NCBI GenBank assembly: GCA_024400715.1
Contig: JAKSMH010000007.1
Location: forward strand, 1-18,013
Direction: 5' to 3'
DNA length: 18,013 nucleotides
DNA from: Bacteroidales bacterium
Lineage (GTDB): Bacteria; Bacteroidota; Bacteroidia; Bacteroidales; WCHB1-69
Shown here in pieces: positions 1 to 17,699 of the stretch (position 1 is its first letter; each line of letters starts with the position of its first letter). A program made the translations under genes and the position numbers. The notes below the pieces were generated by a model. It was not told the DNA's origin and did not search any database. It saw only the letters and a list, made by a program, of their open reading frames with translations.

Positions 1-294
1 CACTACCAGGGCAACCAAAAGGAAAGAGATTCGGCCTACCATCAGGGCACCTGTTGGCCGTGGCTCCTGGCTCCATTCAGCGACGGAATGTTGGCCGTTT
101 ATGGCAAATCTGCCGTCCCGTTTTTGGAAAACATCTTTTACAAATTTGACAGCTGTATGAAGGACTACGGCATTTCCAGCATTTGTGAAATCACCGACGG
201 AGATCCACCTTTCAAACCCAACGGATGCATTTCTCAGGCCTGGAGCGTGGCCGCCTTATTATACCTGAAATGGCAGGTAGATAGAATGAAATAG
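1..294 (+). CDS. Glycogen debranching enzyme, C-terminal fragment (5' end outside window)
   Basis: This is the last 97 codons of a gene that enters from the left; the frame is open from base 1 and ends at TAG 292-294. Residues 13-26 of the fragment read YHQGTCWPWLLAPF, the hallmark of the C-terminal (alpha/alpha)6 barrel of bacterial amylo-alpha-1,6-glucosidases, usually YHQGTVWPWLLGPF. The segment after it, around NGCISQAWSVAALL, fits the family's last helices. The family removes alpha-1,6 branch points of glycogen in the cytoplasm. An internal ATG at 88 is not the start, because the conserved motif lies upstream of it. The next gene begins 24 bases on, and the debranching enzyme / glycosyltransferase / GH57 order is the Bacteroides glycogen operon as I recall it. 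It is the only gene here whose natural end is TAG. Confidence 0.9.
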   Translation, partial: HYQGNQKERDSAYHQGTCWPWLLAPFSDGMLAVYGKSAVPFLENIFYKFDSCMKDYGISSICEITDGDPPFKPNGCISQAWSVAALLYLKWQVDRMK

Positions 295-1652: not shown

Positions 1653-2843
1653 ATGCATAAAATCTGTTTTCATTTTCAAATCAGTCAACCCTTTCGTCTA
1701 AGAACATACCGTTTCTTCGACATCAATCAAAACCACCATTATTTTGATGATTATCAGAATAGTTACTTGGCTAATCGTCTGGCTGAGAGATGCTATCTTC
1801 CTGCCAATGCGATGTTCCTTGAGCTGATCAGGAAATACGGAGAACAAATACATTTAAGTTTCAGCATATCTGGAAGTTCCATTAAATTATTTCAAGAATA
1901 TTGTCCCGATGTCATTCAAAGTTTCAAGGAACTGATTGCCACTGGCAATGTTGAAATTACAGGAAGTACCTTCACCCACAGTATTGCTTCTTTGTATAAC
2001 AAAAGCTGTTTTTTGGAACAAGTTCATCTTCAAGAAAAGTTATTAAAAGAAGTCTTCGGCATTCGCCCCACGACTTTTTGCAACACCGAAATCATCTATT
2101 CAGATGAGATTGGCGAATGGCTGCACGAAGCCGGTTATGATACGGTGCTCACCGAAGGCGCAAGACATATTTTGGGTTGGAAAAGCCCTTGCTTCCTCTA
2201 TTGCAATCCATTTCAAACCGACTTGAAATTATTACTGAGAAGTTATCAGCTCTGCGATGACATCACCTCTCGTTTCGAAGAACAGGGTGCTGACGGTATG
2301 GGACTGACGGCGGAAAAATACATTCAAAAATTGGATACGATTTCCGAAGAATCTCCTTTCATCAATCTTTATTTTGATTACGAAATCATTGGGGAATACC
2401 ATACAGCCGAGAGCGGAATTTTTGAATTTTTCAAGGCATTATTTTCACAATTAGCTGAATCTAAGCAATATCAGTTTATGATGCCTAAGGAAGTCACCCA
2501 ACACAAGATTCCTTGCTCCACGATGCACGCCCCGTGGCCCATATCCTATTCTGGCGACGAAAAAGACACTGCCGAATGGTTAGGCAACGATTTGCAAAAC
2601 GAAGCCTTCCAGCAATTGTTCCAATTGGAAGAACTTTACAAAAAATCCCATAACGAAACCGCGAAGTTGAATTGGCTTCGACTACAAGCGGCCGACCACT
2701 TTAACTTTATGGGCACCAAGTGGTTCGCACACAATACCGTTCGCCGAAACTTTGACGTATATCCATCTCCTTATCAAGCATTCATCAATTTTATGAATGT
2801 ACTTAACGATGTTAAATTACAATTAGAAGAAAGTTCCAAATAA
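1653..2843 (+). CDS. GH57 family glycoside hydrolase (alpha-amylase-like)
   Basis: A 396-residue protein of glycoside hydrolase family 57, which acts on alpha-glucans with retention of configuration. All the family's conserved regions can be located: region 1 as HFQISQP (7-13, variant of HQP), region 2 as GNVEITGSTFTHS (98-110), region 3 as FCNTEIIYSDE with Glu146 as the expected nucleophile, region 4 as YFDYEIIGEYH with Asp242 as the expected acid/base, and region 5 around WLRLQAADHF (341-350). There is no signal peptide, so it should act in the cytoplasm on stored glycogen with the two genes before it. The length matches the short alpha-amylase-like branch of GH57 rather than the 600-700 residue branching enzymes or amylopullulanases. 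Exact activity (amylase, glucanotransferase or branching) is not settled. Its TAA stop shares one base with the ATG of the following peptidase gene. Confidence 0.9.
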   Translation: MHKICFHFQISQPFRLRTYRFFDINQNHHYFDDYQNSYLANRLAERCYLPANAMFLELIRKYGEQIHLSFSISGSSIKLFQEYCPDVIQSFKELIATGNVEITGSTFTHSIASLYNKSCFLEQVHLQEKLLKEVFGIRPTTFCNTEIIYSDEIGEWLHEAGYDTVLTEGARHILGWKSPCFLYCNPFQTDLKLLLRSYQLCDDITSRFEEQGADGMGLTAEKYIQKLDTISEESPFINLYFDYEIIGEYHTAESGIFEFFKALFSQLAESKQYQFMMPKEVTQHKIPCSTMHAPWPISYSGDEKDTAEWLGNDLQNEAFQQLFQLEELYKKSHNETAKLNWLRLQAADHFNFMGTKWFAHNTVRRNFDVYPSPYQAFINFMNVLNDVKLQLEESSK

Positions 2844-5287
2844 TGTTCAAGTCAAAGCGTTGTTTTCTACTTGTTTTCCTAATATTTCTTGCGGTAACGG
2901 GAGCGGCCTCCCCCATCGACAGTAGTTACGCCAAGCGAATTGCCAGCCGTTTCCTTCAACAGACAAGAGGTTCCGTCTGCCCGGAATTGACATATCTTCA
3001 CTTACATCCCGACAACCCTTCGTCCTATTACATCTTCAATTATGATAATGGGTTCATCATTGTTGCCGGGGACAACAACCAATCACCCATATTGGGTTAT
3101 TCAACAGAAACGCACTTTCAGGAAAATAACCTTCCCCTACTTCTAAAAAAGACCCTTCAAGTCCAACCTCGACAAAGTCGAAGTACAGAAAATAACATAG
3201 AAAATCCTGATGCTCACCTATTGTGGCAAACCTTGGAATCTGGAAACGCCACTTCCAACGACATCATCTCCGTAGATCCCATTATACAAACCACTTGGGG
3301 ACAAGACCCCTATTACAATCTGCTTTGTCCCACCGACAACAATTCCACATCCGGACGTGCGGTAGCGGGCTGCATTTCCGTAGCAATGGCACAAATCATA
3401 AACCACCACCAGTTTCCGCAAAACGGATTTGGTTCTCACGAATATACCAGTGCCCTTTACGGGCACCTTTCCGCCGACTTTGGCAATACCACCTACGATT
3501 ACGACAATATGCCCAATGCCTTGACCGAATATTCCTCTATGCAGGAGAAAATGTCGGTGGCGACCTTGATTTACCATTGCGGTGTAGCCATCGAAACCGA
3601 CTACGGTCCTGAAAGCAGTTCGGCTTATCCCATTGGCAACGCACCCAGCGGTTTTCACGCCTTGAAAACCTATTTTGGTTACGATGACGCCATCAGTCTG
3701 CGAAAAAACTATTTTAGCACCACGCAAGAATGGGAAGACACGCTCCGTCGCCAACTGGATGCCGGGCTTCCTTTTATCTTGTCCGGCCAGGGAAGCGACT
3801 CCCACACTTTTCTTTGTGACGGTTATCAAATCATTGACGGACAAACCTTTTTTCATATCAACTGGGGTTGGAAAGGCAACAACGACGGCTATTTTTCACT
3901 CACCCATCTAAATCCGGAATCCTATGATTATACTTATCAACAGAAGGCCATTATCAACTTATATCCAGTCCAACACACTTGTATCAATGTAAGTCCAAAC
4001 AGCTTAAATTTAATGGGCAACAACAGCATTGATTCCATCAATATATCGGGATCTATGATTAGCGGGAACATCTTGGTCAACAGCAACGACAACTTCCTGC
4101 TATCCACGGATAAAAACATTTGGCAAAACAGTTGCGCATTAGATAGTTCTGGTGGTAAGATATACGTTCAGTACGTGTCATCCGGCAACAACACCGACAG
4201 CATCGACATCAGCATTACAGCCAATGGTGCCGACAGCAAGACCGTCATTGTGCAGGGCTACACGGACGTGGATACTATTTACGCCCAAGCGATGGGAGGC
4301 GGACGCATAGAACCCGCTGGAATCATTCTTGCGCCACGACACGGAAATATTGAATTTCGCCACAACAGTTTGGATCCACAACACGCCTTTTCCGCATTGG
4401 TCATAGACGGGGACACATCCACCATAAATACTGGAAGCTATACCTTTGAAAACATAAATGGAAATCATTCCATCACCGCCATATACCATTGGATATCACC
4501 GCATCTTCAGATTGACTCCTCGGTACTTCACTTTTCCGCCAGATTACACAGCAACAGCACCTCGCAACTTATCCATGTACGGCAGATAGATTTCAGAGGA
4601 AGTGTCACGGCACGGGTTGGAAACCACTTTGAGCTCTCTCCTGACAACCAAAACTGGTTTCAAGAATATGAATTCAATCAAGAAAACAGCTCCATATTTC
4701 TGCGTTATACGGCCAATGACAGTTTGCCAGCAGAGGATTTTCTTATTCTAAGTGTTGATGAACCTGCCATTTGCGACAGTTTGCCCTTGTATGGACAACT
4801 CAGTCCATACAACATTTACCTATACGGCAGCATTGGAGGGCATTTTGAACCGGCGACAGATGTGGTTTCCGTGGCCTACGGAGCAGACACCACGATTTAC
4901 TTCATTGCGGATGACAATTATGAAGTTTTAAGAGTAATTTTGGACGACAACGACTTACACCAAATTGACAGTCTTCGATTAAGGCATATCACGCAAGACC
5001 ACAGTATTTTTGTTCAATATCAAGCACATAGTGTTGGCATTGAAATCAATTCCGAGGATCGAATTTTCCTTTATCCCAATCCGGCCAGCAACCATATAAC
5101 ACCCCAATTGGGTGTTGACTTAGCGGTGGCCTTTTTGACCATCTACGACATCCACGGCCAGATTGTTGAAAAAATGGAAATTAAAAATAGCGAACCGATA
5201 AATATAAGCCATTTATCCAAAGGAAGCTATATTTTCGTCATTGAGAAACAGGATAAAATCTTTATTGAAAAAGTTATAAAGAACTGA
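2843..5287 (+). CDS. C10 family (streptopain/SpeB-like) cysteine peptidase with T9SS sorting domain
   Basis: An 814-residue secreted protease. Residues 1-22 are a signal peptide. Residues 25-110 resemble the inhibitory Spi propeptide of PrtT, interpain and SpeB. The peptidase domain (about 140-375) has GCISVAMAQI with Cys177 as nucleophile, SHTFLCDGYQ with His321, and FHINWGW with Asn340/Trp341, matching the order in streptopain. Next come two alternating module pairs: an Ig/BACON-like sandwich (376-472) and a GGGRIEPAG module ending in NHSITAIY (473-548), then a second sandwich (553-655) and a second such module (656-727). The tail FLYPNPASN to the C-terminus (742-814) is a type A T9SS sorting domain, so the product should be exported, processed and held at the cell surface or released. 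ATG 2843 overlaps the upstream GH57 stop (TAATG). Stop is TGA. Role is probably extracellular protein degradation; targets are unknown. Confidence 0.92.
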   Translation: MFKSKRCFLLVFLIFLAVTGAASPIDSSYAKRIASRFLQQTRGSVCPELTYLHLHPDNPSSYYIFNYDNGFIIVAGDNNQSPILGYSTETHFQENNLPLLLKKTLQVQPRQSRSTENNIENPDAHLLWQTLESGNATSNDIISVDPIIQTTWGQDPYYNLLCPTDNNSTSGRAVAGCISVAMAQIINHHQFPQNGFGSHEYTSALYGHLSADFGNTTYDYDNMPNALTEYSSMQEKMSVATLIYHCGVAIETDYGPESSSAYPIGNAPSGFHALKTYFGYDDAISLRKNYFSTTQEWEDTLRRQLDAGLPFILSGQGSDSHTFLCDGYQIIDGQTFFHINWGWKGNNDGYFSLTHLNPESYDYTYQQKAIINLYPVQHTCINVSPNSLNLMGNNSIDSINISGSMISGNILVNSNDNFLLSTDKNIWQNSCALDSSGGKIYVQYVSSGNNTDSIDISITANGADSKTVIVQGYTDVDTIYAQAMGGGRIEPAGIILAPRHGNIEFRHNSLDPQHAFSALVIDGDTSTINTGSYTFENINGNHSITAIYHWISPHLQIDSSVLHFSARLHSNSTSQLIHVRQIDFRGSVTARVGNHFELSPDNQNWFQEYEFNQENSSIFLRYTANDSLPAEDFLILSVDEPAICDSLPLYGQLSPYNIYLYGSIGGHFEPATDVVSVAYGADTTIYFIADDNYEVLRVILDDNDLHQIDSLRLRHITQDHSIFVQYQAHSVGIEINSEDRIFLYPNPASNHITPQLGVDLAVAFLTIYDIHGQIVEKMEIKNSEPINISHLSKGSYIFVIEKQDKIFIEKVIKN

Positions 5288-5720: not shown

Positions 5721-6800
5721 ATGGCAAAAGAATTGAAATTAATGAAGGGTAACCAAGCCATTGCCGAGGCTGCCATTCGTATGGGTTGCGACGGTTATTT
5801 CGGCTATCCTATTACCCCTCAGAGCGAAGTATTGGAAACATTGATGCAGGAACGTCCTTACCTGACAACGGGTATGGTTGTGCTGCAGGCTGAAAGCGAG
5901 TTGGCATCTATCAATATGGTATATGCCGGTGCAGCGGCTGGCAAACGCGTTATGACTTCATCTTCCTCACCTGGATTTTCATTGATGCAAGAAGGTCTTT
6001 CATATATTGCCGGTGCTGAACTTCCGGCATTGTGTGTAAACGTTGTTCGTGGCGGTCCAGGCCTTGGCACCATCCAACCTTCACAATCCGACTATTTCCA
6101 GACCACCAAGGGTGGTGGACACGGTGACTACAGACTGATCACCTTGGCACCGGCATCGGTACAGGAAATGTATGATTTCGTAGAACTTGGTTTTGACTTG
6201 GCATTCAAGTACAGAAACCCAGCTGCCATCCTTTCCGACGGTGTTATCGGCCAGGTGATGGAAAAAGTCATGGTTGACGACTACAAGCCACGTTGGACCA
6301 ACGAATACATTGAAAAGAATTGTCCATGGGCTGCCACGGGACACCGTTCAACGGGCAAGCACCGTATTGTGACATCTCTTGAATTGGAAGCTTTGAAACA
6401 AGAAGCCATCAACGAAAGAATCCAGGCCAAATACAGAAAATGCGAAGAAGAAGACGCCCGTTACGAAGCCATCAACTGCGAAGACGCAGACTACGTTTTC
6501 GTAGCTTACGGTTCTGCCGCACGTATTTGCATGAAGTCTATGGAACTCGCACGTGCCGAAGGCATCAAAGTGGGTTTGATTCGTCCTATTACCTTGTGGC
6601 CATTCCCAACTAAAGCCGTTGCTGAAATTGGCGGTCGCATGAAGAAGATCTTAAGTGTTGAAATGAATGCCGGTCAAATGATCGAAGACGTCAAGTTAGC
6701 CGTTGACTGCAAGGTTCCTGTTGAACACTACGGCCGTTATGGTGGCGTCATTCCAACCCCGGTTGAAATTTTCGATGCGTTGAAACAAATGGTTAAATAA
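5721..6800 (+). CDS. korA: 2-oxoacid:ferredoxin oxidoreductase alpha subunit (VorB/KorA type)
   Basis: A 359-residue alpha subunit of a CoA-dependent 2-oxoacid:ferredoxin oxidoreductase, which decarboxylates a 2-oxoacid to its acyl-CoA and reduces ferredoxin. The N-terminal pyrimidine-binding domain (about 15-240) begins with LMKGNQAIAEAAIRMGCDGYFGYPITPQSE split over residues 7-36, and includes the RGGPGLGTIQPSQSD loop (109-123). The C-terminal transketolase-like domain covers about 255-350. The protein corresponds to what many Bacteroides annotations call VorB (3-methyl-2-oxobutanoate dehydrogenase subunit) and others call KorA; the sequence does not tell me whether 2-oxoglutarate or branched-chain 2-oxoacids are the substrate. 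No signal peptide; cytoplasmic. It is followed by the beta subunit after 17 bases. Confidence 0.9.
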   Translation: MAKELKLMKGNQAIAEAAIRMGCDGYFGYPITPQSEVLETLMQERPYLTTGMVVLQAESELASINMVYAGAAAGKRVMTSSSSPGFSLMQEGLSYIAGAELPALCVNVVRGGPGLGTIQPSQSDYFQTTKGGGHGDYRLITLAPASVQEMYDFVELGFDLAFKYRNPAAILSDGVIGQVMEKVMVDDYKPRWTNEYIEKNCPWAATGHRSTGKHRIVTSLELEALKQEAINERIQAKYRKCEEEDARYEAINCEDADYVFVAYGSAARICMKSMELARAEGIKVGLIRPITLWPFPTKAVAEIGGRMKKILSVEMNAGQMIEDVKLAVDCKVPVEHYGRYGGVIPTPVEIFDALKQMVK

Positions 6801-6817
6801 ATTAATTCGTTGAAATT

Positions 6818-7660
6818 ATGACAAGAGAAGATATAATTAAACCCGAAAACTTAGTGTATAAACGTACGCCGGTTCTCACAGACAACGTTATGCACTATTG
6901 CCCAGGCTGCGGACATGGTACAGTTCACAGAATCAGTGCCGAAGTTATCGAGGAAATGGGCATCCAGGACAACGTCATCGGTATTTCACCAGTAGGTTGC
7001 TCTGTATTAGCTTACAACTATTTTGATGTTGACTTTGTTGAAGCAGCTCACGGCCGTGCTCCTGCCTGCGCTGCCGCCATCAAGCGTCTCCGTCCCGAAA
7101 CCTTCGTTTTCTCCTATCAAGGTGATGGCGACTTGGCTTCTATCGGCGCTGCCGAAGTGTTGCACGCCTGCAACCGTGGTGAAAACATCACCATGATCTT
7201 CATCAACAACGGTATTTACGGTATGACTGGTGGTCAGATGGCGCCTACTACCCTCGAAGGTATGGAAACCGTCACCTGCCCTTACGGTCGTGACCCCGAA
7301 ATCATGGGACATACCATGAGAATGACCGAAATGCTGGCTCAACTTCCCGGCACTTACTATGTAACCCGTCAGGCCGTTTATACTCCTGCCTTGGCTCGCA
7401 AATGCAAGAAAGCCATCCGTCAGGCCTTTGAAAACCAGAAACTCAACAAGGGCGTTTCTTTCGTAGAAGTTATCTCTAACTGTAATTCCGGCTGGAAGAT
7501 GACGGCGGTTCAAGCCAACAAGTGGATGGAAGAAAACACATTGAAATATTTCCCACTGGGAGATATGAAAGTGGATGGCAAATTCGATCCTAAATTCATC
7601 GAACGCGTGGCCACATTCGACCAACCCAATGAGACTTTATTCTCACTGAGAAAAAAATAA
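6818..7660 (+). CDS. korB: 2-oxoacid:ferredoxin oxidoreductase beta subunit (TPP-binding)
   Basis: A 280-residue catalytic beta subunit. The thiamine diphosphate/Mg2+ motif is clear: GDGDLASIGAAEV from 102, ending in INNGIYGMTGGQ (129-140). Four cysteines, Cys28 and Cys31 (CPGCGH), Cys61 and Cys222 (NCNSGW), have about the spacing of the proximal [4Fe-4S] cluster ligands in two-subunit archaeal 2-oxoacid oxidoreductases, as I recall. It pairs with the alpha subunit to form the active site and passes electrons to the delta subunit. Spacing to its neighbours is 17 bases upstream and 22 downstream, consistent with one transcript. The start at 6818 is preceded by an AT-rich leader without a Shine-Dalgarno, normal for this phylum. 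Confidence 0.93.
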   Translation: MTREDIIKPENLVYKRTPVLTDNVMHYCPGCGHGTVHRISAEVIEEMGIQDNVIGISPVGCSVLAYNYFDVDFVEAAHGRAPACAAAIKRLRPETFVFSYQGDGDLASIGAAEVLHACNRGENITMIFINNGIYGMTGGQMAPTTLEGMETVTCPYGRDPEIMGHTMRMTEMLAQLPGTYYVTRQAVYTPALARKCKKAIRQAFENQKLNKGVSFVEVISNCNSGWKMTAVQANKWMEENTLKYFPLGDMKVDGKFDPKFIERVATFDQPNETLFSLRKK

Positions 7661-7682
7661 TTAATCCTAAAATTCACAAGAA

Positions 7683-8234
7683 ATGACAGAAGAAATAATT
7701 ATAGCAGGTTTCGGCGGTCAAGGTGTTCTCTCAATGGGTAAAATCCTGGCCTACGCCGGCATTATGCAAGACAAGGAAGTTAGCTGGCTTCCTTCATACG
7801 GTCCTGAAATGCGTGGTGGTACATCTAACGTTACGGTAATCTTGAGCGACGAACGTATTTGCTCTCCTTACCTCAACCAATTCGATACCGCCATCATCCT
7901 CAACCAACAGTCTATGGACAAATTCGAAAAGGCAGTTAAACCTGGCGGTTTATTGATTTACGATCCCAACGGTATCAGCAACCACCCCACTCGTAAAGAC
8001 ATCAACATCTACCAAGTGGAAGCTACCGACAAAGCCAGCGAACTGGGTATTTCAAAATTGTTCAATATGATTATCCTCGGTGGTTTCCTCGCCGTTAAAC
8101 CTTTGGTAACTCCCGAAATGCTTCACAAAGGTTTGGAAAAATCCCTTCCCGAACGTCACCACCACCTCATTCCTAAGAATGAAGAGGCCGTTGAAATCGG
8201 CAAGAGCTTGTTGAAACCTTATCACACGCTGTAA
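7683..8234 (+). CDS. korC: 2-oxoacid:ferredoxin oxidoreductase gamma subunit
   Basis: A 183-residue gamma subunit of the same complex (2-oxoacid:acceptor oxidoreductase gamma family). The glycine-rich GFGGQGVLSMGKILAYAG (9-26) and the following WLPSYGPEMRGGTSN (35-49) are family signatures; this domain takes part in CoA binding and assembly. The length is as expected. It closes the operon: a strong terminator starts about 20 bases after its TAA stop. Together the four genes form a complete complex as separate subunits rather than the fused alpha/gamma form that many Bacteroidetes also have. Confidence 0.92.
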   Translation: MTEEIIIAGFGGQGVLSMGKILAYAGIMQDKEVSWLPSYGPEMRGGTSNVTVILSDERICSPYLNQFDTAIILNQQSMDKFEKAVKPGGLLIYDPNGISNHPTRKDINIYQVEATDKASELGISKLFNMIILGGFLAVKPLVTPEMLHKGLEKSLPERHHHLIPKNEEAVEIGKSLLKPYHTL

Positions 8235-8256
8235 TCATTATTTTGATTTTTCATAA

Positions 8257-8286
8257 AAAAACGGCGACCATTCGGTCGCCGTTTTT
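8257..8286 (+). terminator. Rho-independent terminator of the 2-oxoacid oxidoreductase operon
   Basis: A 13-bp perfect stem (8257-8269 with 8274-8286) with an ATTC loop; the core arm is ACGGCGACC. The stem begins with A residues that pair with the T-run after the GC core, so it could work in both directions. It starts 22 bases after the gamma-subunit stop codon. Confidence 0.92.
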
Positions 8287-8531
8287 CGTTTAGGCCTCCA
8301 TTAACGACTGTCATTCTTTTTCAGGAAAACAAATCGTCATCCAAAGCCTCCGACGTGATACTGTCCCCAAAAGTTAAGGGAATTATCCCCTTCCGCCTTG
8401 CAAAGAGATTCCGACTTCGCTACGCTTCATCGTAATCTCAACAAGATTAATCGGATAATCCAAAAAGTGAATAATTTTCTTGCATTTTTTCTTAATATTT
8501 TTTTTTACTAGTTATCAATAAAAAAATATTG
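8287..8531. other. Non-coding gap with weak repeat remnants
   Basis: The gap between the terminator and the next promoter has no frame I can support. It holds a small stem AAGGG/CCCTT (8376-8380 with 8388-8392), an inverted GAGATT/AATCTC pair (8405-8410 with 8434-8439) around a CTTCGCTACGCTTC segment, and TGTCCCCAAAAGTTA (8362-8376), which looks like the end of some insertion sequences. From about 8460 the DNA becomes AT-rich promoter-like sequence. None of this gives a firm identity. Confidence 0.4.
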
Positions 8532-8539
8532 TATCTTTG
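8532..8539 (+). promoter_or_regulatory. Candidate -7 box (TATCTTTG) for the adhesin gene
   Basis: A perfect TAnnTTTG match at 8532-8539, followed by GC and an AT-rich leader of about 40 bases before ATG 8583. No good TTTG is visible at the -33 position; the region there is T-rich. The exact form TATCTTTGC recurs on the minus strand at 17743-17750, which supports its use as a real promoter element in this genome. Confidence 0.6.
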
Positions 8540-8582
8540 CAAGATAGAATTTTTATTTTAAACCTTAATATATTTTAAGCCT

Positions 8583-9521
8583 ATGAAAAAATTATTACTA
8601 TTAAGCTTGTGTGCTTTGTCATTGTTTTGCGCTCAAATACAAACAATCAATGCACAAACTGTTTGGGACGGAACAGCCGACGTCTCCTGGTATGACGAAT
8701 CTCAAACCGATTTCTACATCTATACAGCCGAAGAATTGGCAGGTTTGGCTTCCTTGGTCAACAACAGCACTTCCAATTTTTCAGGTAAGACCATCCATTT
8801 GGAAGCCGACATTTGGCTTAATTCGGACAACGACAACACCAACAATTGGATTAAGATTGGCGGCTGTACCCAGTCCTCCGGTGAAATATCGGGAACCATC
8901 AAAGCTTTCAGCGGCACCTTCCATGGTGGTGGACACATCATTTACAATATGTACTGCAACAACAGCGGCTATTTCCAAGCCGGTTTGTTTGGCAACCTTC
9001 AATATCCCGGCTCCATCGACTCTCTGATTTTGATAAATCCCGTAACCATTTCCAACGGTATGATGGGTGCTTTGGTTGCTTTTATCGGCAACAACAGCAA
9101 TTCAGGCAACGGCATTGTCAACATCAGCGAATGTATGGTCATCAACGAACAAGTGCAAGGTGTCAACACATCATCCAACAATAATGTCGGCGGTTTGGTG
9201 GGAGCAGCATATCCCAACAAACAGAGCGGTGGATATTGTACAACCAACATTCAACATTGCCTTGTCACAGGATCCATTACCGGACAATATGTCGGAGGCA
9301 TCTGTGGAAACAGCCAAGGTGCCGCCTGCTCCAACTGCTATTTTGCAGGCACTATCAGTAGCAGTTACGCCACAGGAGGCATCTGCGGTTATAGCGGCAC
9401 GGTCAGCAACTGTTTCTCCACCTTTTCAGGAAGCAACTCATCGGGTAATGGCACCACGAAAACCCTTGCCTATATGCAAAGCAACGCATTTCTCAGCGAC
9501 CTTGACAACCATTTCAAATAG
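8583..9521 (+). CDS. Adhesin 5' part: signal peptide and GLUG-like region, ends at premature TAG
   Basis: A 312-residue piece. Residues 1-25 form a signal peptide (MKKLLLLSLCALSLF, cleavage probably after NAQ). Residues 47-77 (YTAEELAGLASLVN and the following GKTIHLEADI) are the entry segment seen in many Bacteroidetes GLUG-motif surface proteins. Three GLUG-like turns follow: VGGLVGAAYP (202-211), VGGICGNSQGAACSNCYFAG (237-256) and GGICGYSGTVSNCF (265-278), which should form a right-handed beta-solenoid. Such regions are used in surface adhesins. Alone it lacks any anchor or sorting signal and ends abruptly after FLSDLDNHFK, just before the conserved NDGLPVL motif found beyond the stop. It is best read as the front of the split gene. 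Confidence 0.75.
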   Translation: MKKLLLLSLCALSLFCAQIQTINAQTVWDGTADVSWYDESQTDFYIYTAEELAGLASLVNNSTSNFSGKTIHLEADIWLNSDNDNTNNWIKIGGCTQSSGEISGTIKAFSGTFHGGGHIIYNMYCNNSGYFQAGLFGNLQYPGSIDSLILINPVTISNGMMGALVAFIGNNSNSGNGIVNISECMVINEQVQGVNTSSNNNVGGLVGAAYPNKQSGGYCTTNIQHCLVTGSITGQYVGGICGNSQGAACSNCYFAGTISSSYATGGICGYSGTVSNCFSTFSGSNSSGNGTTKTLAYMQSNAFLSDLDNHFK

Positions 9522-9638
9522 GACTTCTGCGACTATAACGACGGACTGCCCGTATTAACCTGGCTTCCCTGTGAAAACGACCCAGATTGCGGAACGGTAA
9601 GTGAAATTCAATTCACCAATATCACGGGTTCTTCCGCT

Positions 9639-12600
9639 ATGGTTTCTTGGTCCGCAAGTCCATACGGAACCCCAATGGAATTCATCTTGGAATACACTAT
9701 TGCCGGAGAAGAGAACTGGGAAAGTGTCTATGCGGAAAGCAACAGTTACCTGTTAAGCGGACTTGAGCCCAGCACAGAATACGAAATTCGCATTATGACC
9801 AACTGCGAGGAAGGCAGCAGCGATTATCAGACCAGCGGTTTTACCACGCGTTGTCTGGTGGATGAAGAATTTGCTATTGGCAATGGCACAGGCACAAATT
9901 ATCAATTCCCTGTCAACAATTATTACAACTACACTTACAGCCAACAGATTTTCACTGCCGAAGAATTGGGAAACACCGCCAACAACATATCGGGTATTAG
10001 TTTCCAATATGGCTATTCTTCCCCATCTACCGCAAAAAATGACGTTAATATATATCTGGGGCACACTTCTAAAAGCAGTTTCGCCAGCGGAAGCGACTAC
10101 GAGTTGTTTGACAGTCTGCAACTGGTATATTCCGGTGCCTTAAACTGCACCCAGGGATGGAATCGTTTTGACTTTGACACTCCTTTTGAATACAACGGCA
10201 TCAACAACCTCATCGTGGCCGTGGATGACAATTCGGGACATTACAACAACAGTTCCTACGTGTTTAATACCCATAGCACTTCCGGCTATATGACCATTTC
10301 CCATTTTTCTGACTCAGACAATCAAGATCCAGCAAATCCTTCCTATGCCGGCAGCAATTACAGCAACCGCAACAATGTCAAGATTCACTATTGCGCTGAA
10401 GGTACTTGTGCCGCACCCACTTTAATTGTCACCAACACCGATGCCAACAGTGTCGAGATAGAATGGACTCCCGGCTATCAGGAAAGCACTTGGGAACTGC
10501 GCTATAAGGCAACGAGTGAGACAGACTGGATTGATGAAGGATATGTTTATGGAAATTCCTACTCGCTCTATTCACTTAGTCCAAACACTCATTACACCGT
10601 TCAACTACGTGCCATCTGCGACGAAGGATATGAAAGTTCTTGGACTTCCGCCAACTTCAAGACCGAATGCGGTCCTATTTCATCCAGCGACCTTCCCTGG
10701 TCCACCAATTTTGACGAAGAAGATTATTCAAGTTTACCTGATATTGAAAAATTTCCAGACTGCTGGAATAAACTCACCTCTGACGCTTCTCATTTTCCAT
10801 ACGTCTATTCCGGTTCTTACCACAGTGCTCCCAATTCATTGGATTTCCATTACACACCCAACTGCTATGACGTGGCTATTTTGCCTGCCTTGGGCGACGA
10901 TGTAGATGCAAACAGTTTAATGCTGACTTTCTACCTGATTAAATCCTCCACCTCCGCCATTATGGAAATTGGAGTTATGGATGACAAGGATGACATTACC
11001 ACTTTCGAAGTATTAGACACGTTGAACACGAATGAACTGGAAAGCTGGGAATATATTATGTACCCGCTGTCAAACTACACCGGTTACGGCAAATACATCG
11101 CCTTCCGCGTTTCCAACGGCAACAGCAGCACATACAGAATTGACGATCTTACTATGGACTTCATTCCAAGTTGTTTACAACCTCTCAATGTCACCATTAG
11201 CAATATCGATGCCAATTCTGCTACCATTGCATGGACAGATGCCAATGATGCCAGCAGTTGGATTATCGAATATGACACTACCGGATTCACACCCGGTACA
11301 GGCATTACTGTCACAGCCACGAGCAATCCATTCGAATTAACCGGACTTGACAATAGTTACACATACGACATCTATGTAATTGCGAACTGTGGGGGTTCTG
11401 ACTACAGCGACTACAGCGAAGTTCGTACATTCACCACGGAAATTTGTAGTCTCAGCGACCAATGCGAATACACTTTCAACCTGCACGACAGCTATGGTGA
11501 TGGCTGGAACGGAAACTCCATCAGTGTTTACAGCAACAATATTTTAGTAGGCACTTACACAATACCAAGTGGCAATGACGAGGCAAGCTATAGTGTTGGT
11601 CTTTGCGACATGAGCAACGTTAGTTTAGTTTGGACCAGCGGTTCCTACGCTTACGAAACCTCATTTGAAATCCTTGATCCATCTGAAGAAACAATTTACA
11701 GCTGCACAGACGGCAGCACCCTTACTTCTGGTGTTTCCTTTACCAACTTTACCATCTCTTGCTCGGCACAAACCTGCTTGAAACCAACAGATTTGGCAGC
11801 CACCAACATCACAACCAATTCTATGGACTTGTCTTGGACTGCCCGTAATGGCGAAAGTTCCTGGGATGTTGTTTATGGTCCTGCCAATTTTGATCCAGAA
11901 ACCTCAGGCACTACCGTCAATGTTACCAATACCCCCAATACCACGCTCGGCGGATTGAATTCCAATACCACTTACGACATTTATGTAAAAGCCTATTGTG
12001 ATAATGATGCCGAGAGTATTTGGAGCAACAAAATCACTGTTACCACTGAATGCGAGCTTACTACTTATCCTTTCTCTGAGAATTTTGATGGAGGCACTAT
12101 GCCCAATTGCTGGACACAAAACATCATTTCCAACACGCATGTATGGGAAGTTGTCATTCCGTCTTCCAATCCTTCAAGTGCCTACTCAGGCAGTTATGCC
12201 GCCCGTTTCAAAACCTCTGACCGCGGCTCTGAAACAGATTTTATAAGCCCAATGGTTGATATGACTTCTGCCACCTCACCCGTACTTTCATTTTGGTATG
12301 TCAACCAAATATGGAGTGGCGACCAAGACCAACTCTCCGTTTATTACAGAGCTTCCTTTGAAGACAGCTGGACCCTATTGGCTCAATACAACAGCAACAT
12401 CACATCTTGGACAAATGTAACTCTTCCCCTCCCCGAAGGCTTAAGCTCTTGCCAGATATGCTTCCGCGGATTGTCGGATTACGGCTACGGTATTTATTTG
12501 GATAACATTTCCATTAACGAAAATGGTGCTCCAGAGCCAGAAGAATGCGATGTTCCCACGGGTCTGACTGCCAGCAATGTTGAATACAATTCTGTCCTCA

Positions 12601-13340
12601 TTTCTTGGAATGCCGGAAATGCCAACGAATGGAATCTGCAATACAAAGCACAAGATGGCAGCTGGATTGCCGTTAACCACTTGACAAGCCCAAGCTACAA
12701 CCTGACAGGCCTGACCGCTCAAACATCCTACGAAGTACAGGTTCAGGCGGTCTGCACCGACAACGTAAGTGACTGGACAACCTCCATCAGTTTCACTACG
12801 TCGGCCGCTCCCGTTGACCCCTGTGAAGCTCCAACAGATTTACAGATTGGCGGTATTAGCGAAACTTCAGCCGTGGCCAGCTGGAATGCCAACGGTGGCA
12901 CCAACTGGAAAATCGGTTACAAACAACAAAGTGCTTCTGATTGGCAGGAGTTCACCATTTCCACCACTTCCTATAACATTGAAGGTTTAAGTGCCAACAC
13001 CACTTACGATTTCCGCGTAAAAACCGTCTGTGAAGAGAACGAAAGCGAATTTGTAAGCACAAGCTTCACGACAACTGGCGTAGGCATTGACAACAATCTG
13101 TTGTCCAACAGTATCAGTCTGATGCCCAACCCTGCCGACAACCACATCAGCTTCTCCATTGAGGCCAATATCAACGTAAAAGAAGCAGCTATTTTCAATG
13201 CTTTTGGTCAATTAATCCAGACCATTACGCTGTCGGACAACCACTGCACAATAAATCTTGAGAATTACGCATCCGGAATGTATTTCATCCGCATTGCTAA
13301 CGACAATGCCGTTGCCACAAAGAAATTCATCAAGAAATAA
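9639..13340 (+). CDS. Adhesin 3' part: fibronectin III and jelly-roll domains with T9SS sorting domain
   Basis: Counted from ATG 9639 this is 1,233 residues, but that ATG is probably not a start: the first strand of its first fibronectin domain (EIQFTNITGSS, from 9604) lies upstream in the same open frame. Fibronectin III domains lie at about 1-70, 257-342, 511-600, 712-803, 970-1054 and 1061-1146, most ending in a Y-x-V-x-A-x-C strand. Two MAM/cleaved-adhesin-like jelly rolls (343-509, and 804-962 starting FSENFDGGTMPNCW) separate them. Residues 602-708 hold DSYGDGWNGNSISVYSNN, a module common in T9SS cargo. The T9SS type A tail begins at SLMPNPADNH (1160) and ends ATKKFIKK. The protein is probably a surface adhesin. 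Without the 5' part it has no signal peptide. murD follows after 30 bases. Confidence 0.8.
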   Translation: MVSWSASPYGTPMEFILEYTIAGEENWESVYAESNSYLLSGLEPSTEYEIRIMTNCEEGSSDYQTSGFTTRCLVDEEFAIGNGTGTNYQFPVNNYYNYTYSQQIFTAEELGNTANNISGISFQYGYSSPSTAKNDVNIYLGHTSKSSFASGSDYELFDSLQLVYSGALNCTQGWNRFDFDTPFEYNGINNLIVAVDDNSGHYNNSSYVFNTHSTSGYMTISHFSDSDNQDPANPSYAGSNYSNRNNVKIHYCAEGTCAAPTLIVTNTDANSVEIEWTPGYQESTWELRYKATSETDWIDEGYVYGNSYSLYSLSPNTHYTVQLRAICDEGYESSWTSANFKTECGPISSSDLPWSTNFDEEDYSSLPDIEKFPDCWNKLTSDASHFPYVYSGSYHSAPNSLDFHYTPNCYDVAILPALGDDVDANSLMLTFYLIKSSTSAIMEIGVMDDKDDITTFEVLDTLNTNELESWEYIMYPLSNYTGYGKYIAFRVSNGNSSTYRIDDLTMDFIPSCLQPLNVTISNIDANSATIAWTDANDASSWIIEYDTTGFTPGTGITVTATSNPFELTGLDNSYTYDIYVIANCGGSDYSDYSEVRTFTTEICSLSDQCEYTFNLHDSYGDGWNGNSISVYSNNILVGTYTIPSGNDEASYSVGLCDMSNVSLVWTSGSYAYETSFEILDPSEETIYSCTDGSTLTSGVSFTNFTISCSAQTCLKPTDLAATNITTNSMDLSWTARNGESSWDVVYGPANFDPETSGTTVNVTNTPNTTLGGLNSNTTYDIYVKAYCDNDAESIWSNKITVTTECELTTYPFSENFDGGTMPNCWTQNIISNTHVWEVVIPSSNPSSAYSGSYAARFKTSDRGSETDFISPMVDMTSATSPVLSFWYVNQIWSGDQDQLSVYYRASFEDSWTLLAQYNSNITSWTNVTLPLPEGLSSCQICFRGLSDYGYGIYLDNISINENGAPEPEECDVPTGLTASNVEYNSVLISWNAGNANEWNLQYKAQDGSWIAVNHLTSPSYNLTGLTAQTSYEVQVQAVCTDNVSDWTTSISFTTSAAPVDPCEAPTDLQIGGISETSAVASWNANGGTNWKIGYKQQSASDWQEFTISTTSYNIEGLSANTTYDFRVKTVCEENESEFVSTSFTTTGVGIDNNLLSNSISLMPNPADNHISFSIEANINVKEAAIFNAFGQLIQTITLSDNHCTINLENYASGMYFIRIANDNAVATKKFIKK

Positions 13341-13343
13341 TAT

Positions 13344-13351
13344 TACTTTTG
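13344..13351 (+). promoter_or_regulatory. Possible internal -7 box (TACTTTTG) ahead of the MurD-like gene
   Basis: A perfect TAnnTTTG match lies in the 30-base gap between adhesin and ligase genes, 19 bases before ATG 13371. No TTTG stands at a fitting distance upstream, so it may be chance. If real, it would let the ligase and the genes after it be expressed independently of the adhesin. Confidence 0.3.
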
Positions 13352-13370
13352 ACCACGATATTACAGAATT

Positions 13371-14747
13371 ATGGTAGATGTCATTTTAGAACAAATCAAA
13401 AACAAGAAAATTGTCATTTTAGGCTTCGGAAGAGAAGGCGTTTCCACATACCAGTTCATCAGAAAGCATTTTCCCACTATGGACATTGTGGCCGCCGACC
13501 GTAGCGAAGCCCTCAATATTGAAGAATTTAAAAATGACAAGCACTTGCGATTTGTCATTGGCAGCGAATATGCACAAAATCTCAACGACTACGACCTCAT
13601 TTTCAAGACACCTGGGGTGAACTTGAACAACATCAACTATTTTATCCATCCTTATCGCATTACTTCGCAAACCGAATTGTTTTTACAAGGATTCCGCCAA
13701 CAGGTCATCGGCGTTACTGGAACCAAAGGTAAAAGTACCACATCATCACTGATTTATCACCTGCTTTCCAATAGTCGAGGCAACACGTTTTTGGCTGGCA
13801 ATATCGGCATCCCATTTTTCAATATTATCGATGATCTGGACGAAAATTCCATCATTGTCGCAGAATTGTCCGCCCATCAACTGGAATTTTCCGAGACTTC
13901 CCCACACATTGCCGTTCTGCTGAATATGTTCCAGGAACATCTCGACCATTTTCAATCCTTGAGCAACTACCAACTCGCCAAAATGAACATCACCAAATTT
14001 CAGCAAGAAAGTGACACGCTCATTTACAACAACGAAGACGAACACATTCCACATCAGATAAAAAGCCACAATTATAAACGCAACTTTTTAAAATTCAGTA
14101 GTTTGCAAAGCATTGACACGGGATGTTACTGTATGGACGACAATATTATGTATGTTCGTAACGGCGAGTTGTTAGGCGAATACGACCTTCGACACTACTA
14201 TAATCTGCCTGGCCGCCATAATTACAACAACATTATGGCAGCCATCTTGGCTGTAAAGAATTATGGCATAAGCGATGAAGACATCCTTAAATACTTAGCC
14301 ACATTCAACGGTCTGGAACACCGCATTGAGTATGTCGGCACGTATAAGGATATCAAATTTTACAACGACAGCATTTCCACCATTCCCGAAGCCGCCATTG
14401 CCGCCCTTAAAGCCATCAAGAACGTCAATACGCTTATCCTGGGTGGATTTGACAGAGGCATTGCCTACGATCTTCTCATCGACTATTTGCACGACAACCC
14501 CGTAGGCAATGTCGTCTTTACTGGTCCAGCAGGCCTCCGCATCAAACAAGAATGGGAAAGTAAATATCCACTGCCGGATTCCGTTTTGGTGGAAGACAAC
14601 TTTACCAAGATTGTCGATTACTGTTTTCAAGTAACGGGAAAAGGGAAAAGCTGCCTGCTGTCTCCGGCTGCGTCCAGCTACGACCAATTCAAGAATTTTG
14701 AATTTCGAGGAAGAAAATTTAAGGACGAGATCCTTCGTCACAAATAA
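13371..14747 (+). CDS. murD: MurD-type UDP-MurNAc-L-alanine:glutamate ligase, divergent
   Basis: A 458-residue cytoplasmic Mur ligase. The N-terminal Rossmann domain has ILGFGREGVSTYQFI (16-30) and FKTPGV (78-83). The ATP-binding loop is GVTGTKGKSTTSSLI (114-128), followed by AELSAHQLE (164-172), EHLDHF (189-194), GRHNYNNIMAA (281-291), GLEHRIE (314-320) and LLSPAASSYDQF (429-440), the MurD order throughout. The family joins glutamate to UDP-MurNAc-L-Ala in peptidoglycan synthesis. Two motifs differ from standard MurD as I know it: GTKGKSTT instead of GSNGKTTT, and YNDSISTIPE (331-340) instead of NDSKATN, so the lysine there is isoleucine. The gene is not next to other dcw cluster genes. It may be the cell's only MurD, a second paralogue, or a MurD2-like enzyme with different glutamate stereochemistry. 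Confidence 0.82.
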   Translation: MVDVILEQIKNKKIVILGFGREGVSTYQFIRKHFPTMDIVAADRSEALNIEEFKNDKHLRFVIGSEYAQNLNDYDLIFKTPGVNLNNINYFIHPYRITSQTELFLQGFRQQVIGVTGTKGKSTTSSLIYHLLSNSRGNTFLAGNIGIPFFNIIDDLDENSIIVAELSAHQLEFSETSPHIAVLLNMFQEHLDHFQSLSNYQLAKMNITKFQQESDTLIYNNEDEHIPHQIKSHNYKRNFLKFSSLQSIDTGCYCMDDNIMYVRNGELLGEYDLRHYYNLPGRHNYNNIMAAILAVKNYGISDEDILKYLATFNGLEHRIEYVGTYKDIKFYNDSISTIPEAAIAALKAIKNVNTLILGGFDRGIAYDLLIDYLHDNPVGNVVFTGPAGLRIKQEWESKYPLPDSVLVEDNFTKIVDYCFQVTGKGKSCLLSPAASSYDQFKNFEFRGRKFKDEILRHK

Positions 14748-16961: not shown

Positions 16962-17699
16962 TCAGAAGCGTTTCAGCTTTTCCCGGTCGATGGGTTCGAC
17001 GGTCAACACGTCGTCGCTGACGTGGATGAGGATGATCCCATTCTCGCGGGCATAGTCCTCCGCCTCCTTCGTGTAATTCAGGGCCGCCATCGCCACATAG
17101 ACATCCATATCCGCAAATCGCGGGTACAGCAGCTTGAAGTTCCGCATCTGCTTCAGGAAGTGGTTGATCTTGGCCTTGGTGCAGTGGGTCTTGACCTCCA
17201 CCGCGATGGCCTCCGTGGTATCCGCGTAGAGCAGGTCTATCTCCATGTTGAGGCCCAGTTCGCTGTTCGAGCCGGTCATCCCCTTGAAGCTCTGCTCCAC
17301 CTTGAAGCCCGCCTTCTGCAGTGCCCGCAGCGCCGAGCGCTTGGTGAGCCCTTCCAGGATGTGGCCTGTCTGCGAGACAAACTGGTCGCCCAGTGCCCTG
17401 ATCTTCCGGTCGGTTTCCTTCATTTGCCTGTCGGTCTCCTGCATACGTCGGTCGGTCTCCTGCATACGTCGGTCGGTCTCCTGCATTTGCCGTTCGGTTT
17501 CTATGCGAGATGCCTCAATACGCCTGTCGGTCTCAATGCGAGACGCTTCTATGCGCTTATCGGTCTCTATTCGTGATGCTTCTATACGCTTATCGGTCTC
17601 CTGCATCTGGACCGAGATGGCAGAAATGTATTCTTTCAGCTCCGCCCACGACATCCGGTGCGGATCCTGATTCAATATCGGGTTAACTGTAGGTTCCAT
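16962..17699 (-). CDS. Coiled-coil protein with PD-(D/E)XK nuclease-like domain (DUF3782-like)
   Basis: A 245-residue protein with no signal peptide. Residues 18-105 form a long coiled coil made of three 11-residue units (ETDKRIEASRI, 34-66) and five 7-residue units (ETDRRMQ type, 67-101). The C-terminal part (about 106-240) looks like a restriction-endonuclease fold: NMEIDLLYADTTEAIAVEVKTH gives Asp155 and Glu168-x-Lys170 as the PD-(D/E)XK residues, with Glu118 a possible fourth. Proteins of this type are common in Bacteroidales and cyanobacteria, often annotated DUF3782, with no established function as far as I know. A hand count of 17041-17100 gives 36 G+C in 60, against 20 in 60 at 15841-15900, so base composition differs strongly from neighbouring genes. 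It starts at 17699; a TATCTTTG box lies 44 bases upstream. Confidence 0.82.
   Translation of the reverse strand: MEPTVNPILNQDPHRMSWAELKEYISAISVQMQETDKRIEASRIETDKRIEASRIETDRRIEASRIETERQMQETDRRMQETDRRMQETDRQMKETDRKIRALGDQFVSQTGHILEGLTKRSALRALQKAGFKVEQSFKGMTGSNSELGLNMEIDLLYADTTEAIAVEVKTHCTKAKINHFLKQMRNFKLLYPRFADMDVYVAMAALNYTKEAEDYARENGIILIHVSDDVLTVEPIDREKLKRF
17397..17600 (-). repeat. In-gene tandem repeats: three 33-bp units then five 21-bp units
   Basis: Within the coiled-coil gene, 17502-17600 is three 33-bp units (11 codons, ETDKRIEASRI) and 17397-17501 is five 21-bp units (7 codons, ETDRRMQ). The copies 17428-17448 and 17449-17469 differ at one base in 21. All units are multiples of three, so copy-number changes would keep the frame and only alter coiled-coil length. 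Confidence 0.9.

What the first reader, a model, noticed from the sequence alone, without database searches (positions are those of the whole stretch)
9519..9521. Single in-frame TAG splits an otherwise intact T9SS adhesin of about 1,585 codons
The sequence shows one frame from 8583 to 13340 with no other stop than TAG 9519-9521 and no frameshift. Conserved sequence continues directly after it, and signal peptide and sorting domain lie on opposite sides. There is no second defect in 3.8 kb downstream, so any nonsense event is recent or the stop is sometimes read through. TAG is one base away from Trp, Gln, Lys, Glu, Tyr, Leu and Ser codons. If genuine, it could be an on/off variant of a surface antigen.
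Basis: partly seen in the sequence, partly recalled or inferred. Interest (0 to 1): 0.7.

Follow-up and report, generated by a model that had tools for sequence, protein, structure and literature searches.

The report
Recent stop codon in surface-protein gene
One stop codon cuts short an otherwise intact large secreted surface-protein gene of a gut Bacteroidales bacterium; close relatives have the gene whole, so this is most likely a fresh, ordinary knock-out mutation or a sequence error.

Summary
In detail: frame 8583-13340 (1,585 codons) has one internal stop, TAG 9519-9521, and no frameshift. Searched as two separate pieces, the halves match single uninterrupted proteins elsewhere: P0001 (1,585 aa, 97% over the C piece) and a gene in a horse-faeces MAG (L086, 1,585 aa, 94.6% DNA identity). 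Five of five close relatives inspected have a sense codon at the site. The downstream part is still constrained (pairwise dN/dS 0.22 against L086), and amino-acid changes on the window side show no clear excess (17 versus 11), so the stop is recent. TAG is a working stop here: it ends the window's first gene, at or within one codon of where seven relatives' genes end, and release factor 1 is present in relatives. No repeat at the site suggests a switch. Best reading: a recent null allele of a fibronectin-III/T9SS surface protein; a base-calling or assembly error cannot be excluded without reads. Side result: a near-identical intact copy sits at another site, with gene-exact boundaries, in a more distant species; its synonymous divergence (0.15-0.20) is far below that of three housekeeping genes between the same two genomes (0.78-1.06), which points to gene-sized transfer.

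The parts
8258..8285 (+). hairpin-forming inverted repeat ending in T residues after the korC-like gene, possible terminator
   Evidence: seen by eye in the sequence; the terminator scan did not list it
8532..8539 (+). TATCTTTG, resembles the TAnnTTTG -7 element of Bacteroidetes promoters (consensus recalled), 44 bases before the start codon
   Evidence: position; the sigma-70 scan does not cover this promoter type
8583..9518 (+). N piece, 312 codons: signal-peptide-like start (by eye) and a GLUG-like module
9519..9521 (+). in-frame TAG, the only internal stop of the 1,585-codon frame
   Evidence: sense codon in 5 of 5 close relatives inspected
9522..13337 (+). C piece, 1,272 codons: six fn3 stretches and a C-terminal Por_Secre_tail sorting domain
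13338..13340 (+). natural stop TAA of the frame
8571..13343 (+). stretch alignable at 94.6% to the intact copy at another site in another species; the alignment ends just outside the gene on both sides
292..294 (+). TAG serving as the natural stop of the first gene in the window (control that TAG terminates)

Best explanation
A recent point mutation made a premature TAG in a normally single, 1,585-codon gene for a secreted, surface-attached fibronectin-III protein that leaves the cell by the type IX route. Translation stops after 312 codons (inferred). The short product would keep its signal peptide but lack the C-terminal sorting domain, so it should stay in the periplasm or be degraded; the rest would not be exported, because the next start (9639) encodes no signal peptide (by eye). 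The allele is a null variant in a group of strains and species that also holds intact copies. Shown: the stop, intact relatives, kept constraint, TAG as a working stop. Inferred: that the stop is real in the cells, and its effect on export.
For: Intact relatives of the same length: P0001, a cluster of 17 sequences, 97% over the C piece, and the L086 gene. The site is a sense codon in 5 of 5 close relatives inspected, and the sequence continues on both sides. Pairwise dN/dS against L086 is 0.074 for the N piece and 0.221 for the C piece; 157 of 260 substitutions are at third positions. Polarised amino-acid changes in the C piece: 17 on the window side, 11 on the P0001 side, 6 ambiguous. 130 unselected substitutions would give 4.4 stops on average. 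TAG ends the first gene of the window; the seven relatives of that gene held here end at that codon (1 of 7, TAG) or one codon later (6 of 7; five TAA, one TAG). Release factor 1 scores over its cut-off in 4 of 5 genomes. Premature stops are reported as frequent in gut B. fragilis within hosts: 28 of 325 nonsynonymous mutations (PMC11379459, passages seen).
Against: No reads are available, so a base or assembly error would look the same. dN/dS is higher in the C than in the N piece (0.22 against 0.07), and window-side changes are somewhat more numerous (17 against 11); both could be read as mild relaxation, though fn3 tracts often evolve fast (recalled) and a pairwise dN/dS covers both lineages. 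No second assembly with the same stop was identified; truncated forms could be hidden inside the P0001 cluster. Selection for the loss was not tested.
Confidence: 0.67

Rival explanations
1. The TAG is a sequencing, polishing or strain-mixing error in the record, and the gene is intact.
For: No second defect, and intact near-identical relatives. Errors do occur in such records: in genome G050 a relative of this gene has a TAG and then an apparent frameshift, and its release factor 1 is split in two. A 99%-identical N end (P0121) stops at 188 aa, which may be an assembly break (contig end not verified).
Against: The record does not look noisy: five neighbouring genes (korC-like, murD-like and the three after it) have the same length as in L001 within 11 aa, and the window's korA-, korB- and korC-like frames are open.
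Confidence: 0.25
2. The TAG is read through, by a suppressor tRNA or a changed code, and a full protein is made.
For: Both flanks are under constraint.
Against: TAG ends the first gene of the window at or within one codon of where seven relatives' genes end; release factor 1 is over cut-off in 4 of 5 relatives' genomes, and split in the fifth; no tRNA gene in the window; five close relatives have a sense codon, so no conserved recoding site. A suppressor tRNA in the window's own genome could not be looked for.
Confidence: 0.03
3. A phase-variable switch turns this surface protein off and on.
For: Invertible promoters are known in Bacteroides (PMC11379459, passages).
Against: The change is a single codon; no tandem repeat lies at the site (nearest array 9064-9082), and direct or inverted repeats touching it are short 14-16 base partial matches. 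Runs of one base at the site were judged by eye.
Confidence: 0.04
4. Two separate genes, the second with its own start.
For: An ATG lies at 9639.
Against: The close relatives carry one uninterrupted gene; the downstream start has no signal peptide by eye.
Confidence: 0.01

Closest known systems
T9SS-exported fn3 surface proteins of uncultured Bacteroidales (Por_Secre_tail, fn3, GLUG-like N end)
   Same: Frame length equal to P0001 and the L086 gene; all 9 of 9 genomes in the genus set of G002 hold relatives of the C piece.
   Different: This copy is interrupted by a stop after 312 codons.
Premature-stop alleles of gut Bacteroides under local adaptation and reversion (Torrillo and Lieberman, authors recalled; PMC11379459, passages seen)
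   Same: Single nonsense change in a gene that is otherwise constrained.
   Different: One record, no time series, no proof of selection; TTA and TCA codons are not enriched here.

Membership tests
T9SS cargo protein | C-terminal sorting domain (Por_Secre_tail, PF18962) | tested here: met
   C piece residues 1202-1270, 47.7 bits, cut-off 27
T9SS cargo protein | N-terminal signal peptide | not tested
   the start of the N piece looks like one by eye only
T9SS cargo protein | signal peptide and sorting domain in one translated chain | tested here: not met
   TAG 9519-9521 separates them in the window; N module and tail are in one chain in P0001 and L086
T9SS cargo protein | secretion machinery in the same genome | not testable with these tools
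   no genome held for the window; not looked for in relatives
recent nonsense allele (early pseudogene) | intact close relatives with a sense codon at the site | tested here: met
   5 of 5 inspected: P0001-P0004 and L086
recent nonsense allele (early pseudogene) | little or no further decay downstream | tested here: met
   no gap or second stop in 1,272 codons; dN/dS 0.22; 17 versus 11 changes
recent nonsense allele (early pseudogene) | stop present in the sequenced cells | not testable with these tools
   no reads
recoded or suppressed TAG | TAG not used as a normal stop; release factor 1 lost | tested here: not met
   TAG is a natural stop at 292-294; release factor 1 over cut-off in 4 of 5 relatives' genomes; window's own genome not held
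phase-variable gene | slippage tract or invertible repeat at the switch | tested here: not met

The most novel reading that the evidence does not exclude
The stop is a locally selected, readily reverting loss of a surface protein (for instance under phage or immune pressure), in a gene that also moves between species as an exact gene-sized unit, so that the community keeps both silent and working copies at more than one chromosomal site.
Probability: 0.12. Interest if true: 0.5.

Novelty: new member of a known kind. Interest (0 to 1): 0.22.

Why it matters
If the stop is real it is one more example of a short-lived null allele in a gut Bacteroidales gene that is conserved over longer times, the pattern discussed in PMC11379459 (passages). 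The gene-exact copy at another site in another species is the more informative part: it suggests that whole T9SS surface genes can pass between species as units.

Tried and rejected
Read-through and recoding were rejected on TAG use and release factor 1. Phase variation was rejected for lack of repeats. Stops in the wider family were looked for: of 47 N-piece matches in 29 of 104 family genomes (E <= 1e-20), 46 have no stop in the matched stretch and one (G050) has a TAG at residue 35 of its frame, then seems to lose its frame; its release factor 1 is split too, so the record looks error-ridden. 39 of the 47 matches reach query residue 306 or further; none covers codon 313 itself, because the query ends at 312. 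G044 carries a frameshift further on. The short open frames in G057:C90 and G045:C144 run into contig ends. Enrichment of stop-adjacent TTA and TCA codons was not found. The glmM-like protein of the L086 contig gave no test, since G001 has no match; Tsf was used instead. A 21-base start-region pattern gave no sign of a dispersed cassette start in 9 genomes (one exact site in G002, the gene itself, and one two-mismatch site in G013). Two paper searches were run; of their hits one paper was seen in passages, none in full. The promoter and terminator scan of 8200-9700 gave one promoter-like site (3.1 expected) and three terminator-like sites (1.4 expected), none used in the argument.

Full report
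What is there. The frame from 8583 to 13340 is open over 1,585 codons except for TAG 9519-9521. The N piece (312 codons) has a signal-peptide-like start (by eye) and a weak GLUG motif (16.8 bits, cut-off 20.5); the C piece (1,272 codons) has six fn3 stretches and a Por_Secre_tail domain. The neighbours are a peptidase C10 gene with its own sorting tail (2843-5287) and ferredoxin oxidoreductase genes (5721-8234) upstream (the middle one was not scanned), and a murD-like gene (name recalled from its sequence) downstream. No tRNA gene is in the window.

Relatives. Searching the halves apart, the C piece finds P0001 (1,585 aa, 97%, a cluster of 17 sequences), P0002 (75%), P0003 (67%) and P0004 (66%), all single proteins with the N module and the sorting tail in one chain. 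The genome scan with the korA-like neighbour kept 80 loci out of 404 relatives. The nearest, L001 from a horse-faeces MAG, is collinear on both sides at 86.7% and 83.0% DNA identity and has at the same site a different, shorter fn3/T9SS protein of 936 aa without a GLUG match. The genome of L015 (G002, also a horse-faeces MAG) holds an intact copy of the window's gene: 1,585 aa, 94.6% DNA identity over window 8571-13343.

Age of the stop. In five of five close relatives inspected (P0001-P0004, L086) the site is a sense codon, and the sequence around it aligns without a gap. Against L086, pairwise dN/dS is 0.074 (N piece) and 0.221 (C piece), and substitutions by codon position are 48, 55 and 157. 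With L086 as outgroup, the C piece has 17 changes on the window side, 11 on the P0001 side and 6 ambiguous; the N piece has 1, 0 and 1. With P0002 as outgroup, unique changes in the C piece are 8 (window), 6 (P0001) and 23 (L086). Random substitution would give 0.33 stops per 10 changes and 4.4 per 130. One stop and no other defect fits a very recent event, or an error in the record. The N piece is more constrained than the C piece, and the window side has slightly more changes; this does not amount to clear decay.

Is TAG a stop here? Of 14 gene ends checked in the window, TAG ends the first gene at 292-294 and the broken one at 9519; the other 12 use TAA or TGA. Of the seven relatives of the first gene held here, one (L001) ends at the same codon, with TAG, and six end one codon later, one of these with TAG. 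Release factor 1 matches over its cut-off in 4 of 5 genomes of relatives; in the fifth, G050, it is split. Read-through is therefore unlikely, but the window's own genome is not held, so a suppressor tRNA cannot be excluded.

How common are broken copies? In 104 genomes of the family of G002, 29 hold 47 matches to the N piece at E <= 1e-20; 46 of 47 have no stop inside the match. 39 of 47 reach query residue 306 or beyond; codon 313 itself is outside the query. The exception, G050, has a TAG at residue 35 of its frame, after which the same frame later loses all likeness and fills with stops, an apparent frameshift (the other frames were not printed). G044 has a frameshift further downstream. 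G050's split release factor 1 suggests assembly errors in that record.

Gene-sized transfer. The copy in G002 lies in a different neighbourhood. The alignment to the window starts 12 bases before the start codon and ends 3 bases after the stop. Synonymous divergence of the gene is 0.20 (N) and 0.15 (C), while that of the korA-, korB- and korC-like genes between the window and L015 of the same genome is 1.06, 0.92 and 0.78; between the window and L001 these are 0.27, 0.24 and 0.18. The Tsf protein on the contig with the G002 copy is only 79% identical to that of G001, the genome of L001, and 80% to four others, so the contig is unlikely to be a stray piece from the window's near kin. A transfer of about one gene between species is the simplest reading; direction and route are unknown. 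At its other site the gene lies behind a 105-base repeat that has 14 further copies at 70-82% identity in 3 of 4 genomes searched; 11 of these 14 have an ATG frame of at least 60 aa starting within 200 bases, a loose criterion.

Mechanism and known context. Inferred: translation ends after 312 codons; a product with a signal peptide but no sorting domain would not be attached outside. PMC11379459 (passages seen) reports that 28 of 325 nonsynonymous within-host mutations of B. fragilis in the data it re-used were premature stops, and argues that such changes are often locally adaptive and revert. That fits this case but is not tested by it; stop-adjacent codons are not enriched in this gene (TTA 18 of 96 Leu and TCA 19 of 199 Ser, against 47 of 260 and 22 of 170 in ten other window genes). 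The finding is a recent null allele of a known kind of gene, or an error, and of modest interest.

Noticed in passing
L086 (G002:C36) 8743-13515 against window 8571-13343: An intact near-identical copy of the gene sits at a different chromosomal site in a more distant species, with the alignment ending within a few bases of the gene's ends.
   Followed up: partly
L086:13521-13625 and 13754-13858: A 105-base repeat, twice here (79% alike) and dispersed in G001, G002 and G007, often ends shortly before an open frame; it may be a shared promoter or leader.
   Followed up: partly
L001:12654-16445: At the same site the nearest relative found has a shorter fn3/T9SS protein of 936 aa and an extra 284-aa gene without a Pfam match: the site is variable.
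   Followed up: partly
genomes G007 (C75), G008 (C36), G009 (C23), G012 (C3): Several large relatives of the C piece lie close together on single contigs, as if in arrays.
   Followed up: no
window 2843-5287: A peptidase C10 gene with a Spi inhibitor domain and a T9SS tail.
   Followed up: no
window 16962-17699 (-): A protein with a repetitive ETDRR-like stretch and a DUF3782-like part below the cut-off.
   Followed up: no
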